From a bacterium (GTDB lineage: Bacteria > JAJVIF01 > JAGGVT01), in contig JAGGVT010000030.1 of assembly GCA_021157815.1 (NCBI GenBank), forward strand, positions 1-9,559: a stretch of DNA of 9,559 nucleotides, written 5' to 3'. Within the stretch, counting starts at the first letter, position 1; every line of letters begins with the position of its first letter. Below, in pieces: positions 1-9,559 of the stretch. The notes under the pieces were generated by a model. That model searched no databases. It worked only from the letters and a program-made list of their open reading frames with translations, and had not been told where the DNA came from. A program made the translations under genes and the position numbers.

Positions 1-1094
1 CCGCCAGCCTTCCTGACCTCCGGTTTCTCCTCGACTTTCGCCTGATGCCCTTTCGTCAACCGTATCACTTTACCCAGAAACTGCTCGTAAACGTTGCCGA
101 GAATTTCCGCCGGCATGAAACTAAACTCATACGGGCTTTCGGGATAATACAATCGCGCGAGTATTTCTTTTATGATTTTATCATCGATGCGAATATTCGG
201 CGTAAGCGTGTCCTGAATCGATGCCCGTCCCGTTTCCTTCTTGAAATGAAACAAACCGGAGTTGTACTTATCATCAGCATTGCGGAATACATTAACAAGC
301 TTTTTGTAGATGCCCGTACCCGCGCAAAGATTCTGCAATTGCGAATAATCCTCGATTCCCCTGTCCTCACACATGCGAAGGAAGATAATCCGGTCGATTG
401 TCCTTTGGACAGCGAAATTAATTCCGCGGATATCTATTGCCGGATTCCTCAGCGCGATATTCCGTGCCAGCGCCTCGCGCCATTTCTCAATTTCCTTCAA
501 AAACTCGGTGTCAACCTCCGATGTCCCCCGCTTGCCTTTTTTCGATTCGACATACTTGTCAAAGGAACCTTTCAGGATGGCGTCCCGCGAGAACACCGAT
601 TCTATTTCATCCCATTTATCAATATATTCCCGAAACGTGTAATACTTGATTCGCGCTTGCGATGGCTTGTCATTCTTTTTGGGGCGAATCCTGCAATCGT
701 AAACCGCCATCTCTTCAAAGTCGGTCAGAATGGAAAGCGGAAGTTTCCCGCTCCAGCCGTATCGTCGCAGTTGGTAAGCCGGATGTATTTCGTGTTTAAC
801 ATCGACAGACGGCTTTTTCGTTTCCAGAAAGAATTTAGGTTTGCCCGCGATAGTGAAGCAATAATCAGGCGCTTTGGTAGTGAGACCGACTTTGAGGGGA
901 AATTCCTGTTTGACATCACGATACGGTATCGCGTAACCCGCCTCGTTTGTCATATCCCATCCAAGCGCTTTCCAGAATGGGTTGACAAAATCCGATCGCA
1001 GCTGCGTTTCGTTATAAGCGGCGCTTTTGAGGTTATCGATATCCCGCTCGAAAATCTCAATCAACTCTTCGATTATTTTAGGCGCATTGGGCAT
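1..1094 (-). CDS. Eco57I-like type II (IIG) restriction-modification enzyme, N-terminal part (C-terminus off window)
   Basis: I see 364 complete codons read right to left from ATG at 1094 to the window edge, with no stop. Residues 1-125 resemble an HsdR-N-like PD-(D/E)xK nuclease: D77 in KAPDYCF, then E91-T-K93 in FFLETKK, followed by the conserved QLRRYGW (108-114) and LSILTDFEE (120-128). Residues 165-350 are the helical linker of this family, including GSFDKY, RNIALRNP, FAVQRTIDRIIFLRMCEDRG and PAEILGNVYEQFLGK (328-342). The sequence stops at VRKAGG, just before the YYTP segment that opens the N6-adenine methylase domain in relatives. From family knowledge, one chain cuts DNA and methylates adenine, giving self versus non-self discrimination. 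The start is fixed by an in-frame TGA four codons upstream and by the promoter. No Shine-Dalgarno is present. Whether the methylase and target-recognition parts are intact cannot be seen. Confidence 0.93.
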   Translation of the reverse strand, partial: MPNAPKIIEELIEIFERDIDNLKSAAYNETQLRSDFVNPFWKALGWDMTNEAGYAIPYRDVKQEFPLKVGLTTKAPDYCFTIAGKPKFFLETKKPSVDVKHEIHPAYQLRRYGWSGKLPLSILTDFEEMAVYDCRIRPKKNDKPSQARIKYYTFREYIDKWDEIESVFSRDAILKGSFDKYVESKKGKRGTSEVDTEFLKEIEKWREALARNIALRNPAIDIRGINFAVQRTIDRIIFLRMCEDRGIEDYSQLQNLCAGTGIYKKLVNVFRNADDKYNSGLFHFKKETGRASIQDTLTPNIRIDDKIIKEILARLYYPESPYEFSFMPAEILGNVYEQFLGKVIRLTKGHQAKVEEKPEVRKAG

Positions 1095-5391: not shown

Positions 5392-5413
5392 ATTAAAAAA
5401 GAGTGAAAAAAAG

Positions 5414-5444
5414 TTGCCAATATGGTAGAATTCCTGCTTAAAAT
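5414..5444 (+). promoter_or_regulatory. Candidate promoter upstream of the porin leader (weak)
   Basis: TTGCCA (5414-5419, 4 of 6) and TAAAAT (5439-5444, 5 of 6) are separated by 19 bases. A TG at 5435-5436 sits just upstream of the -10, though not in exact extended -10 register. The spacing is long, so this is only the best visible candidate. Use of this site would give a leader of about 345 bases. Confidence 0.3.
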
Positions 5445-5602
5445 TGGGGGTTAAGTTGTATTTAGTTTCGTTAATATTTTTGGGCATATCATGAAGATAA
5501 ATGGGGTTTTGTGGCGATAATATATGTATTACAGGCACGGACATATTCGGGTCGGATTAACCCCGGTGTGGTGGTTTTGTGTCTGATTAATTTGTTATGG
5601 AC

Positions 5603-5667
5603 TCTCCTCGCGGGGCGGAAAGAAAGGAGGTGAAAACAATTATTAATCCGCGAGTCCCGACAGGAGA
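5603..5667 (+). promoter_or_regulatory. Hairpin displaying a 13-base anti-16S sequence (AGAAAGGAGGTGA)
   Basis: AGAAAGGAGGTGA (5621-5633) is an exact complement of the pyrimidine-rich 3' end found in many 16S rRNAs. It lies in the loop of a stem formed by TCTCCT (5603-5608) with AGGAGA (5662-5667) and CGCGG (5609-5613) with CCGCG (5648-5652). The 3' side has a 9-base bulge. No ATG, GTG or TTG stands at normal distance; the codon in place is ATT (5639), opening 12 codons to TAA at 5675. CTCCT (5604-5608) could instead pair with AGGAG (5625-5629) and hide the sequence. Confidence 0.5.
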
Positions 5668-5689
5668 AATGCCATAAATTTTATCAGTA

Positions 5690-5789
5690 GTTCGATTTAG
5701 GGAGTTATTCATAAGGCAACTTGGATTCTTATGAACCAGCCTCCTGAAAATCGAACAGAGTTAAATTCTGTAAGTTACTCCAAGGAGGC
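5690..5789 (+). promoter_or_regulatory. Long leader hairpin with an anti-Shine-Dalgarno strand; possible translational switch
   Basis: Three stacked helices are visible: GTTCGATTT (5690-5698) with AAATCGAAC (5748-5756), GGAG (5701-5704) with CTCC (5741-5744), and TTCATAAG (5708-5715) with CTTATGAA (5728-5735). Together they make 21 base pairs. Overlapping the middle helix, GCCTCCT (5739-5745) is an exact 7-base complement of AGGAGGC (5783-5789), which includes the porin Shine-Dalgarno. The pyrimidine strand could therefore either stay in the hairpin, leaving the ribosome site open, or sequester it. The pairings are read directly from sequence; regulation is inferred. Confidence 0.55.
5782..5788 (+). 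promoter_or_regulatory. Strong Shine-Dalgarno of the SLH porin gene
   Basis: AAGGAGG ends seven bases before ATG 5796, the ideal spacing. It fixes the start ahead of a clear signal peptide. It is the target of the anti-Shine-Dalgarno strand at 5739-5745. Confidence 0.9.
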
Positions 5790-5795
5790 ACAGTA

Positions 5796-7502
5796 ATGAA
5801 GAAAGGTTTTATTTTCTTCGCTGCTATCCTGCTCGTTGGCGTTTTTTGCATCCCGGCATTTGCGGGTCCTTTCACAGACGTGCCAACTGACCATTGGGCA
5901 TACGAAGCGATTGACAAGCTTCAGTCAGAAGGTTTTGTCGAGGGTTATCCCGACGGAACTTTCCGCGGCAAGCAGTCGTTCACTCGCTACGAAATGGCAA
6001 TGGTAGTCGCACGCATGTGGGATCGCCTTGAGTCAATGATATCTTCACCAGCTCCCATGAAAGGTGATTTCTGCACAGAAGCAGACCTTGAGGAATACAA
6101 AGACCTCATTGACAACCTTATGAGTGAGTTTGAAGGTGAAATTGCTCGAATAAAAGGTGATGTTAACAAGGCTCACAGCCGTCTGGATGATGTCGAGAAA
6201 CGTCTTGGCGCACTTGAGCGAATTCGCAGAAGCATCGAATGGTCCGGTCTCATGAGAGTCCGAATCGAATCAATCATCACGGACAACACCGACGTTTTCG
6301 GTGGTGGCACGTGGGGTGGATACTACGATGGTTTCTGGGATGACCTTGAAGGCCAGATTAACGAGCGATGCCCATCCGACCGCGCGGGTTTAATTACTCC
6401 GCTCGTAGGCGGATTTGGTACTACCCCGGGTCAGGGAACAAGTGATCCAGAGCTCGAGCAGCTTATTTTCCTCGCGCTCAACGCTAAACCATCCGACTAC
6501 CTGGATGTTTATGTAAGTTTCCTGCAGATCGCCAGCTATCTTGATTCACCGATTGGCGATCCATTCCCGTCAAACCAGGCTCTCGTAATCGATGAAGCCT
6601 GGATGAACGCGGACCTCATGAACCTTCTCGGCTGGGAAGCCGATGAGGTTTTCAACCGATTCAATTTGCTCTTCGGACGCATTTATGGTCGTGTTGGAGA
6701 ATATGGTCTGATGTTCGACAACGGCTTTGAAAGCCGTCCGGGATTCTTCTTTGATCTCGGTGGCGACCGTCTTGATATCCAGCTTCTGCTTGCACAGAAT
6801 TCACGAATCGGTGAGGCCGAGGGCCTCGGCGTTTTCCGCGCCGCATACGGATTCGGTGATTCACGCAGCATGAGGCTTGAGCGAGACTATTTCGCCAAGG
6901 TAGGTCTTAACGTACTCGCCAGCGGTGTTGGCGACGAGGACGGTTACGGTATCGATCTCAATACAGAGATCCTTGCCTATGACTGGTTCTCACTGCTCAG
7001 ATTTGAGTACCTCTTCCTTAATCAGGACCAACTCGGCCTTAATATTGAGGATTGGTATGGCGATGACTACTCCAACAGCTTCATCGTTGGCGTTGACATC
7101 TTCAATGATGGCAATTTGAAGGCAAATGTTGCCTATGCAGATATCGGTCTTGCGCCAGGATTCTCAAGCGTTGACAACAATCCTTTCGAGGAATTCGACG
7201 CGATGTGGACTGGAATCGGAACCAATATTGGTTATGGATATGAATCAGGAATCAACATGTTCCCGGTTAACTTCCAAGGTGTTGGATTCGATGTCGAGTA
7301 CACATGGTTTGAGAAACTGTATTCTCACCTGGCTATCTATGACGGACAAACTCAGGCAGAGGATGACCTTCCGGTCGTCATTCGCCTGAACCTCCGTTAT
7401 CCTCTCTCTGAGAGTTCCGATATTGCTCTTGAGTACATCCACGCTGGTATCGACTACGACACCATCGCGAAACTCAGGGGCGAATTCCTGGTCAGGTTCT
7501 AA
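5796..7502 (+). CDS. SLH-domain, coiled-coil outer-membrane porin (OmpM/SomA-like architecture)
   Basis: This is a 568-residue exported protein. A signal peptide covers 1-23 (basic MKK, hydrophobic core, AFA then cleavage before G24). One S-layer homology domain follows at 26-75 (FTDVPTDHWAYEAI, EGYPDGTF, TRYEMA), which in relatives binds peptidoglycan-linked polymer. A charged heptad-like coiled coil runs from about 95 to 145. The remainder (about 147-568) alternates polar and aromatic residues like beta-barrel strands and ends in FLVRF, with a terminal Phe as in outer-membrane proteins. By family, such proteins anchor the outer membrane to the cell wall and form a channel. SomA of cyanobacteria, OmpM of Negativicutes and Ompalpha-like proteins share this layout. 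The long structured leader, strong ribosome site and terminator suggest an abundant, regulated monocistronic product. The solute passed is unknown. A lipoprotein is unlikely because C18 lacks a lipobox. Confidence 0.9.
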   Translation: MKKGFIFFAAILLVGVFCIPAFAGPFTDVPTDHWAYEAIDKLQSEGFVEGYPDGTFRGKQSFTRYEMAMVVARMWDRLESMISSPAPMKGDFCTEADLEEYKDLIDNLMSEFEGEIARIKGDVNKAHSRLDDVEKRLGALERIRRSIEWSGLMRVRIESIITDNTDVFGGGTWGGYYDGFWDDLEGQINERCPSDRAGLITPLVGGFGTTPGQGTSDPELEQLIFLALNAKPSDYLDVYVSFLQIASYLDSPIGDPFPSNQALVIDEAWMNADLMNLLGWEADEVFNRFNLLFGRIYGRVGEYGLMFDNGFESRPGFFFDLGGDRLDIQLLLAQNSRIGEAEGLGVFRAAYGFGDSRSMRLERDYFAKVGLNVLASGVGDEDGYGIDLNTEILAYDWFSLLRFEYLFLNQDQLGLNIEDWYGDDYSNSFIVGVDIFNDGNLKANVAYADIGLAPGFSSVDNNPFEEFDAMWTGIGTNIGYGYESGINMFPVNFQGVGFDVEYTWFEKLYSHLAIYDGQTQAEDDLPVVIRLNLRYPLSESSDIALEYIHAGIDYDTIAKLRGEFLVRF

Positions 7503-7755: not shown

Positions 7756-9559
7756 ATGGCTAATATGCTTCCTTGTGATTTGGGACCTGAAACCATAAGT
7801 CCCTGGGAAAGAAAACTATTCTATAGGTTTAAAGAAGAACTTCCTGATAACGTTTATGTTATACATTCCTTAAAAGATCGAACGCACACTGATAAAAGAT
7901 GGGGTGAGGCTGATTTTGTCATAGTATCCACAAAGGGCATCTATGTAATTGAAGTCAAAGGAGGTGGTGTTTCATGTAAAGATGGTAGTTGGATTTATAC
8001 CGATCGTAAGGGAAATTCTTATCCAAAGAGTGAAAGCCCCTGGGACCAGGCAAGCAAGTCGATGTTATCCGTGCAAAAAGAGATTGAATCTAAAAACAAA
8101 AATAATAAAGGATTTGTTTATGGATATGGCGTCATTATGCCTGATGAGCGCTCCATCCCGGATAGCATGGAGATCATCATTGATGTTCTACTGGATAAAG
8201 ACAATCTGGATAAAAGTATGAAAGATTATCTTAGTGTAATTGAAGATTACTGGGTTGGTGAATTTAGAACTAAGCGAAAACGTGTGCCTCGTACAATTTC
8301 CAATCGTGAGATAATTTTTATTCGCAAGATTCTACGCCCAGATTTTGACTCGACATTTACTTTGAAATCGAGATTTGACGTAGCAGAAAGACAGCTTATT
8401 GAGTGGACAAAAGAGCAGCAGGAGACAATGAAGGGTTTAGAAAATAATGAACGTTCGATTATTACAGGTGCTGCAGGTACTGGTAAAACCATCCTTGCAT
8501 TTGACAAAGCAGTCAGTGCTGCAAGAAAAGGGAATAGTGTTTTAATGTTGTGCTTTGGTGAACTATTAGCTGATACACTGATTAATAACATTCCAGAAGA
8601 CGTTAACGAAAATCTCGAAATATTTTCTTTTTTTGGATATGTTACGATGAAAACAAGTGAATATTTAGAGAAAAAAGGGGATGATTTTAATAATCTCTTA
8701 TGCGAAGAAACTCGAATGAAATATGATACTCTCCGTCAAGATCTACCAGAACTTTTTTGTGAAGCTGTACTAAACGATGATGATTTTAAAGCTTATGATA
8801 TGGTTATCATTGATGAAGCTCAAGATATTCTATGCGGAAAACTACCAGACGTAATTGACTTTATTCTAAAGGGAGGATTAAAGTTTGGGAATTGGCATTT
8901 ATTCTTAGACCCGAATCAAGCAAGTGATTTTGCATTAAGAGATATTAATAGAATATTAGAGCAAATGAAATCATACAAACCTGTATTTTTTAACCTGAGT
9001 AAAAATTGTAGAAATTGCAAACAAATTTTGGATGAAGCAAAAAAATTGACAGGTTATGACTTTCTTAATATGAATGCTATCGAAGGAGGGAAATGCGACA
9101 TTATAAAATATTCTAGTACTGAGGATTTCAAAACTAAATATGAAATGAAACTGAAGGAAATTTACAAACTGGGTTATAAAAGCGAAAATATTGTAGTTTT
9201 ATCATCACATGAATATGAGAAGTCTATAATGTTTGATGCCTATCCTATGGATTCTTATTATGATCCTGAGAAAGGTCTTCAGGAATTTGAAAAACAATAC
9301 GCTTCAAAATTAAACAGGATAAATGATCTACTTGATGATACTGACTATTTAATTGGACCTGCATTGCCCAAGCTTTCTAAAATGTACATAGAGGAATTAG
9401 CAAAACCTGAATATCCCTTATATTATAATAGTATCCTGAATATAATTCAAAAATTAGTTGATTATAATACGATAGATCAATTTCGTGGATGCGAAAAAGA
9501 TATTGTAATGTATATTGACTTCAAATCGGAATTAATAAATTTAAAACAAGTGCCGGAAG
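7756..9559 (+). CDS. NERD nuclease-domain / superfamily 1 (UvrD-like) helicase fusion, C-terminus off window
   Basis: An open frame of 601 complete codons runs to the window edge without a stop. Residues about 18-135 form a NERD (nuclease-related) domain: WGEADFVIV (49-57) with D53, IYVIEVKGG (62-70) with the E66-x-K68 pair, and a later WDQA (96-99). This is a PD-(D/E)xK-type layout. A superfamily 1 helicase follows. Its Walker A is ITGAAGTGKT (236-245), Walker B is MVIIDEAQD (349-357), motif III is LDPNQ (384-388), the NLSKNCRN segment is at 413-420, and motif V is IDQFRGCEKDIV (573-584). Only the last helicase motif should be missing. Some NERD-helicases are known from phage-defence settings, but the role here is inferred. 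The gene is far richer in A/T and in ATA, AGA and TTA codons than the porin before it, hinting at transfer. Start chosen as the first ATG after the terminator; the ATG at codon 4 is an alternative. Confidence 0.9.
   Translation, partial: MANMLPCDLGPETISPWERKLFYRFKEELPDNVYVIHSLKDRTHTDKRWGEADFVIVSTKGIYVIEVKGGGVSCKDGSWIYTDRKGNSYPKSESPWDQASKSMLSVQKEIESKNKNNKGFVYGYGVIMPDERSIPDSMEIIIDVLLDKDNLDKSMKDYLSVIEDYWVGEFRTKRKRVPRTISNREIIFIRKILRPDFDSTFTLKSRFDVAERQLIEWTKEQQETMKGLENNERSIITGAAGTGKTILAFDKAVSAARKGNSVLMLCFGELLADTLINNIPEDVNENLEIFSFFGYVTMKTSEYLEKKGDDFNNLLCEETRMKYDTLRQDLPELFCEAVLNDDDFKAYDMVIIDEAQDILCGKLPDVIDFILKGGLKFGNWHLFLDPNQASDFALRDINRILEQMKSYKPVFFNLSKNCRNCKQILDEAKKLTGYDFLNMNAIEGGKCDIIKYSSTEDFKTKYEMKLKEIYKLGYKSENIVVLSSHEYEKSIMFDAYPMDSYYDPEKGLQEFEKQYASKLNRINDLLDDTDYLIGPALPKLSKMYIEELAKPEYPLYYNSILNIIQKLVDYNTIDQFRGCEKDIVMYIDFKSELINLKQVPE

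What the first reader, a model, noticed from the sequence alone, without database searches (positions are those of the whole stretch)
5690..5795. Possible translational switch in the SLH porin leader
A hairpin with 21 base pairs in three helices ends 25 bases before the porin Shine-Dalgarno. Its strand GCCTCCT (5739-5745) pairs either inside the hairpin (CTCC with GGAG 5701-5704) or, over seven bases, with the Shine-Dalgarno itself. Mutually exclusive pairing is the hallmark of riboswitches, thermosensors and protein-binding leaders. I recognise no known class. Porin synthesis responding to envelope state or a small molecule would make sense.
Basis: partly seen in the sequence, partly recalled or inferred. 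Interest (0 to 1): 0.65.

Follow-up and report, generated by a model that had tools for sequence, protein, structure and literature searches.

The report
Bistable leader before an SLH porin
The messenger RNA ahead of an envelope-anchored porin gene forms a real hairpin that can refold to cover the gene's ribosome-binding site, so it may turn porin synthesis down, but the hairpin is not shared with the few known relatives and no trigger is known.

Summary
The hairpin 5690-5756 has 9+4+8 pairs and folds better than all of 200 shuffles (z -4.4). GCCTCCT (5739-5745) is fully complementary to the Shine-Dalgarno (SD) AGGAGGC (5783-5789). The two states differ by only 1.7 kcal/mol, SD-free state favoured. 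Chance gives such a match in 2-4% of shuffles; 3 of 158 sampled genes of the genome reach seven bases. A second strand, CUUGGA in the hairpin loop, matches UCCAAG beside the SD. No shuffle in 4000 and no sampled gene had both within 200 nt, but I chose that test after seeing the data.

Only four genomes of this phylum are held. The hairpin is absent from the other three. The two of the sister genus have their own structured leader with three conserved islands, two of which carry 9-nt perfect complements to the third, the SD, in the same order. Covariation is not above chance, and in one sister genome the competing pairing is energetically out of reach.

Most likely this is a cis-acting leader limiting porin translation by SD capture, default on in the window. 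No Rfam class matches. Ligand or protein control is untested; heating does not open the SD. The switch is plausible, not shown.

The parts
5690..5698 (+). P1, 5' arm GTTCGATTT
   Evidence: pairs with 5748-5756, 9 of 9
5748..5756 (+). P1, 3' arm AAATCGAAC
5701..5704 (+). P2, 5' arm GGAG, which holds the anti-SD strand in the SD-free state
5708..5715 (+). P3, 5' arm TTCATAAG
   Evidence: pairs with 5728-5735; the only such inverted repeat in the genome
5728..5735 (+). P3, 3' arm CTTATGAA
5720..5725 (+). apical loop strand CUUGGA, complementary to UCCAAG 5779-5784 (possible pseudoknot)
   Evidence: 6 of 6 pairs; 3.6% of shuffles for this strand alone
5739..5745 (+). anti-SD strand GCCUCCU
   Evidence: 7 of 7 pairs with 5783-5789; CTCC 5741-5744 also pairs with GGAG 5701-5704
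5755..5771 (+). small second hairpin between the main hairpin and the SD
   Evidence: MFE fold
5782..5789 (+). Shine-Dalgarno AAGGAGGC of the porin
   Evidence: 6 nt before the ATG at 5796
5796..7502 (+). SLH-domain porin of 568 aa, OmpM-like by sequence
   Evidence: Pfam SLH 1e-11; profile of the four orthologues matches D. radiodurans SlpA 1e-22 and Veillonella OmpM1 3e-21, both over the N-terminal part only
5597..5660 (+). upstream stem-loop with AGAAAGGAGG in its loop; possible counterpart of the E1 element of the sister genus, not shown to be homologous
   Evidence: own fold not beyond shuffles, z -0.32; sister-genus model R1 does not find it

Best explanation
The leader is a cis-acting element that can limit translation of the SLH porin by capturing its Shine-Dalgarno. 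In the default fold (shown by energy computation only) the hairpin 5690-5756 locks the CCUCC strand and leaves the SD accessible, so the gene is on. In the alternative fold P1 and P2 are given up, the 5' half refolds, and GCCUCCU closes the SD over seven pairs. The loop strand CUUGGA may also dock on UCCAAG next to the SD. Some signal (a protein, a small RNA or a ligand; inferred, not identified) would shift the balance. Capture of the SD region by two upstream strands recurs in the sister genus with different helices, so I infer that the principle is older than this hairpin.
For: Hairpin z -4.36. Two states 1.7 kcal/mol apart, the SD-free one also formed first in stepwise folds of a growing transcript. 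Anti-SD match in 2-4% of shuffles. Both SD-flanking complements together: 0 of 4000 shuffles and none of 160 and 58 background genes within 200 nt, one of 160 within 300 nt. In the sister genus (G001, G003) three islands of mostly 84-100% identity stand out of a background of roughly 40-50%, the leader folds beyond column shuffles, z -4.9, against -0.7 for the stretch upstream, and two islands carry 9-nt perfect complements to the SD island, each in about 0.2-0.6% of shuffles. The SD opening cost is in the top 0-4% of sampled genes in G001 and G002 over all three contexts, and in G003 only with the longest context.
Against: The window hairpin has no homologue in any of 289 genomes, nor with filters off in the relatives' loci, and the leaders do not align beyond shuffles. 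In G003 the competing pairing is about 20 kcal/mol worse. Compensatory changes are at the shuffled level. The SD of the window itself is no more occluded than in an average gene. The two-strand test was chosen after seeing the data. No promoter or transcript end is known.
Confidence: 0.45

Rival explanations
1. The hairpin is a plain 5' stabiliser or spacer of an abundant porin mRNA, as known for E. coli ompA (own knowledge), and the seven-base match to the SD is coincidence.
For: A strong hairpin with an open SD is the default. CCUCC strings match any good SD; 2-4% of shuffles and 3 of 158 genes do as well. The SD accessibility is ordinary.
Against: The two states are almost balanced, and a second strand matches the other side of the SD. 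Sister leaders conserve such complements in islands.
Confidence: 0.33
2. The leader is a landing site for a trans-acting regulator: the porin itself or another protein, or a small RNA that pairs with the hairpin loop or the SD region; the cis alternative fold is secondary.
For: Porin mRNAs of Gammaproteobacteria are often so controlled (own knowledge). The 12-nt loop with CUUGG is exposed in the default fold.
Against: No protein or small RNA identified; no second copy of the hairpin in the genome.
Confidence: 0.12
3. A metabolite-binding riboswitch of a new class.
For: Mutually exclusive SD pairing and a possible H-type pseudoknot resemble translational riboswitches such as the preQ1 classes (PMC11625349).
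Against: No Rfam match up to E 5; single copy, upstream of a porin and not of a biosynthesis gene; the putative aptamer is not conserved in relatives.
Confidence: 0.05
4. A DNA operator: the inverted repeat TTCATAAG-12-CTTATGAA is a protein-binding site.
For: Perfect 8-bp inverted repeat.
Against: Only one such repeat in 3.2 Mb; it sits inside two further nested helices.
Confidence: 0.05

Closest known systems
ompA RNA thermometer of Yersinia pseudotuberculosis (PMC8245352)
   Same: 5' leader of an outer-membrane protein gene in which RNA structure limits ribosome access
   Different: There heat melts the closed state; here the computed default is open, and heating shifts slightly towards the closed state
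Translational riboswitches with SD-pairing pseudoknots, such as the preQ1 classes (PMC11625349)
   Same: Hairpin loop strand and anti-SD strand that can pair with the SD region
   Different: No Rfam match, no ligand, no conserved aptamer, porin gene downstream
5' leader hairpin of E. coli ompA that stabilises the mRNA (own knowledge)
   Same: Strong hairpin ahead of a single-stranded ribosome-binding site of a porin mRNA
   Different: Additional near-balanced SD-closing fold
slpA leader of Thermus thermophilus, remembered as translationally autoregulated (own knowledge; no paper found)
   Same: SLH-domain outer-membrane protein with a structured leader
   Different: Sequence not compared here; no evidence of protein binding

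Membership tests
Known riboswitch or other Rfam leader class | covariance-model match | tested here: not met
   none at gathering score in the window, none up to E 5 in 5392-5900; relatives' loci give only two sub-threshold hits, neither in the porin leader
Riboswitch (any class) | aptamer conserved across relatives | tested here: not met
   hairpin model R3 finds only its own locus among 289 genomes; leaders do not align; only three relatives exist in the data
Riboswitch (any class) | ligand-dependent structural change | not testable with these tools
   needs in-line probing
RNA thermometer | SD closed at low and open at high temperature | tested here: not met
   SD opening cost only 3.3 to 1.3 kcal/mol from 5 to 65 C; state balance moves towards closed near 60 C; model energies only
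SD-sequestering translational leader | alternative pairing that covers the SD | tested here: met
   seven pairs, state 1.7 kcal/mol above the default
SD-sequestering translational leader | compensatory changes in the helices | tested here: inconclusive
   two sister leaders: 2 double and 7 single changes, shuffles 6.7 in sum; no alignable partner for the window
SD-sequestering translational leader | expression changes when the pairing is altered | not testable with these tools
   needs a reporter
OmpM-like SLH porin (downstream gene) | N-terminal SLH domain, stalk, beta-barrel | tested here: inconclusive
   SLH domain found and N-terminal profile match to OmpM1 and SlpA; barrel not modelled

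The most novel reading that the evidence does not exclude
A phylum-wide, undescribed type of porin leader in which two upstream strands (CUUGG type and CCUCC type) together clasp the sequence CCAAGGAGG around the Shine-Dalgarno, with helices that turn over quickly between genera while the clasp is kept.
Probability: 0.2. Interest if true: 0.6.

Novelty: new member of a known kind. Interest (0 to 1): 0.4.

Why it matters
SLH porins of the OmpM type hold the outer membrane to the cell wall and let nutrients in (PMC10628300), and I found no paper on how their translation is set. A leader that sets porin translation in a lineage known from environmental genomes would be a first lead, and the conserved islands in the sister genus give a clear, testable RNA.

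Tried and rejected
Rfam at gathering score and at permissive E-values: nothing relevant. Covariance model R2 was built with helices shifted by one base and was not used; R3 replaced it. Model R1 of the sister-genus element E1: only G001 and G003, plus one hit at E 0.008 per genome in an unrelated genome, which chance would give over 289 genomes; it does not recognise the window's 5597-5660. Single-sequence genome scan and viral scan for the porin found nothing. Direct alignment of the leaders is not significant. Sigma-70 promoter and terminator scans are at chance level. A short leader ORF (SD AAAGGAGG, then UUG GUU UGA) in the sister leaders was considered, but the window has no matching start codon. 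Thermosensor rejected on computed energies. Paralogous SLH porins of the same genomes do not show the two strands.

Full report
The sequence. The porin gene (568 aa, 5796-7502) follows a 404-base intergenic stretch behind dnaB, purD, an rfaE2-type adenylyltransferase and a YqgF-like gene. The porin has an SLH domain, and a profile of the four orthologues matches D. radiodurans SlpA and Veillonella OmpM1 over the N-terminal part (8BYM and 8BYS are OmpM1 entries, PMC10628300).

The observation. The hairpin 5690-5756 has 9+4+8 pairs, and alone it folds to -23.8 kcal/mol, z -4.36. Of 120 leaders from the same genome, four have an equally low z in the 110 bases before the start codon. The anti-SD strand matches the SD over seven bases. 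That is found in 2-4% of dinucleotide shuffles and in 3 of 158 other genes of the genome within 120 nt, so by itself it is suggestive only.

The two states. With the hairpin forced, the ensemble energy is -31.0 kcal/mol; with the SD helix forced it is -29.2, and the 5' half refolds into another hairpin. In stepwise folds with a growing 3' end, the SD-free hairpin is complete before the SD exists. The model therefore says on by default, with a closed state within reach. The difference vanishes near 60 C in favour of the closed state, so a heat-opened thermometer is not supported. The loop strand CUUGGA (5720-5725) also matches UCCAAG (5779-5784). Both complements together were not seen in 4000 shuffles nor in 160 and 58 background genes within 200 nt; one background gene has them within 300 nt. 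This joint test was defined after the strands were seen.

Relatives. The phylum as held has four genomes. All four have the orthologous porin, 54-57% identical to the window's. The hairpin of the window is in none of the other three, and the leaders do not align beyond shuffles.

The sister genus. Upstream of the leader G001 and G003 are 48% identical, but three islands reach mostly 84-100% per 25-nt bin: about -250 to -175, -125 to -75, and -25 to the start codon. The leader -245..0 has a consensus fold with z -4.9 against column shuffles; the stretch upstream has -0.7. Island 1 carries CCUUGGUUU, complementary to AAACCAAGG at the SD, and island 2 carries ACUUCCUCC, complementary to GGAGGAAGU. 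Island 2 also has the rival strand GGAGAAGG. The order is the same as in the window. In G001 the SD-closing state lies within about 2 kcal/mol of the free fold, but in G003 it is about 20 kcal/mol worse, and in both the free fold has a short local hairpin over the SD. Base-pair changes in the helices are not more compensatory than in shuffles. G002 shows no such strands, but its SD lies in a strong local hairpin.

SD occlusion. Against 128 leaders of the window's genome, the cost of opening the SD is average or below in the window, in the top 0-4% in G001 and G002 for all contexts, and in G003 only with 200 nt of context.

Verdict. A real hairpin and a nearly balanced alternative fold are shown by computation. 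That the leader regulates the porin is inferred, helped by the conserved leader of the sister genus. Which signal it answers to is unknown. No known RNA class fits.

Noticed in passing
L033 2473-2540 (-), L034 2033-2100 (-): Conserved 68-nt stem-loop (E1) about 170-240 nt before the sister-genus porins, 61 of 68 positions identical, with AGAAAGGAGG and CCUUGGUUU; contains SD-like AAAGGAGG followed by UUG GUU UGA, a possible minimal leader ORF.
   Followed up: partly
G001 and G003, about -425 to -375 from the porin start: Moderately conserved island with TTGACC and, 17-18 nt on, TACCAT or TAAGAT: a possible promoter that would give a leader of nearly 400 nt.
   Followed up: no
L034, behind the porin stop, near the contig end: Tandem copies of a 17-nt unit GGTCGTGCCTCTGTTAC.
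   Followed up: no
L036 (G000:C186), upstream of the second SLH porin: Array of short repeats of the type GTTAGCAG before the paralogous porin gene.
   Followed up: no
window 7756-9558 (+) and 3-1094 (-): NERD-domain helicase, incomplete at the window end, and on the other strand the start of a protein that looks like a restriction-type enzyme (by reading, not tested).
   Followed up: no
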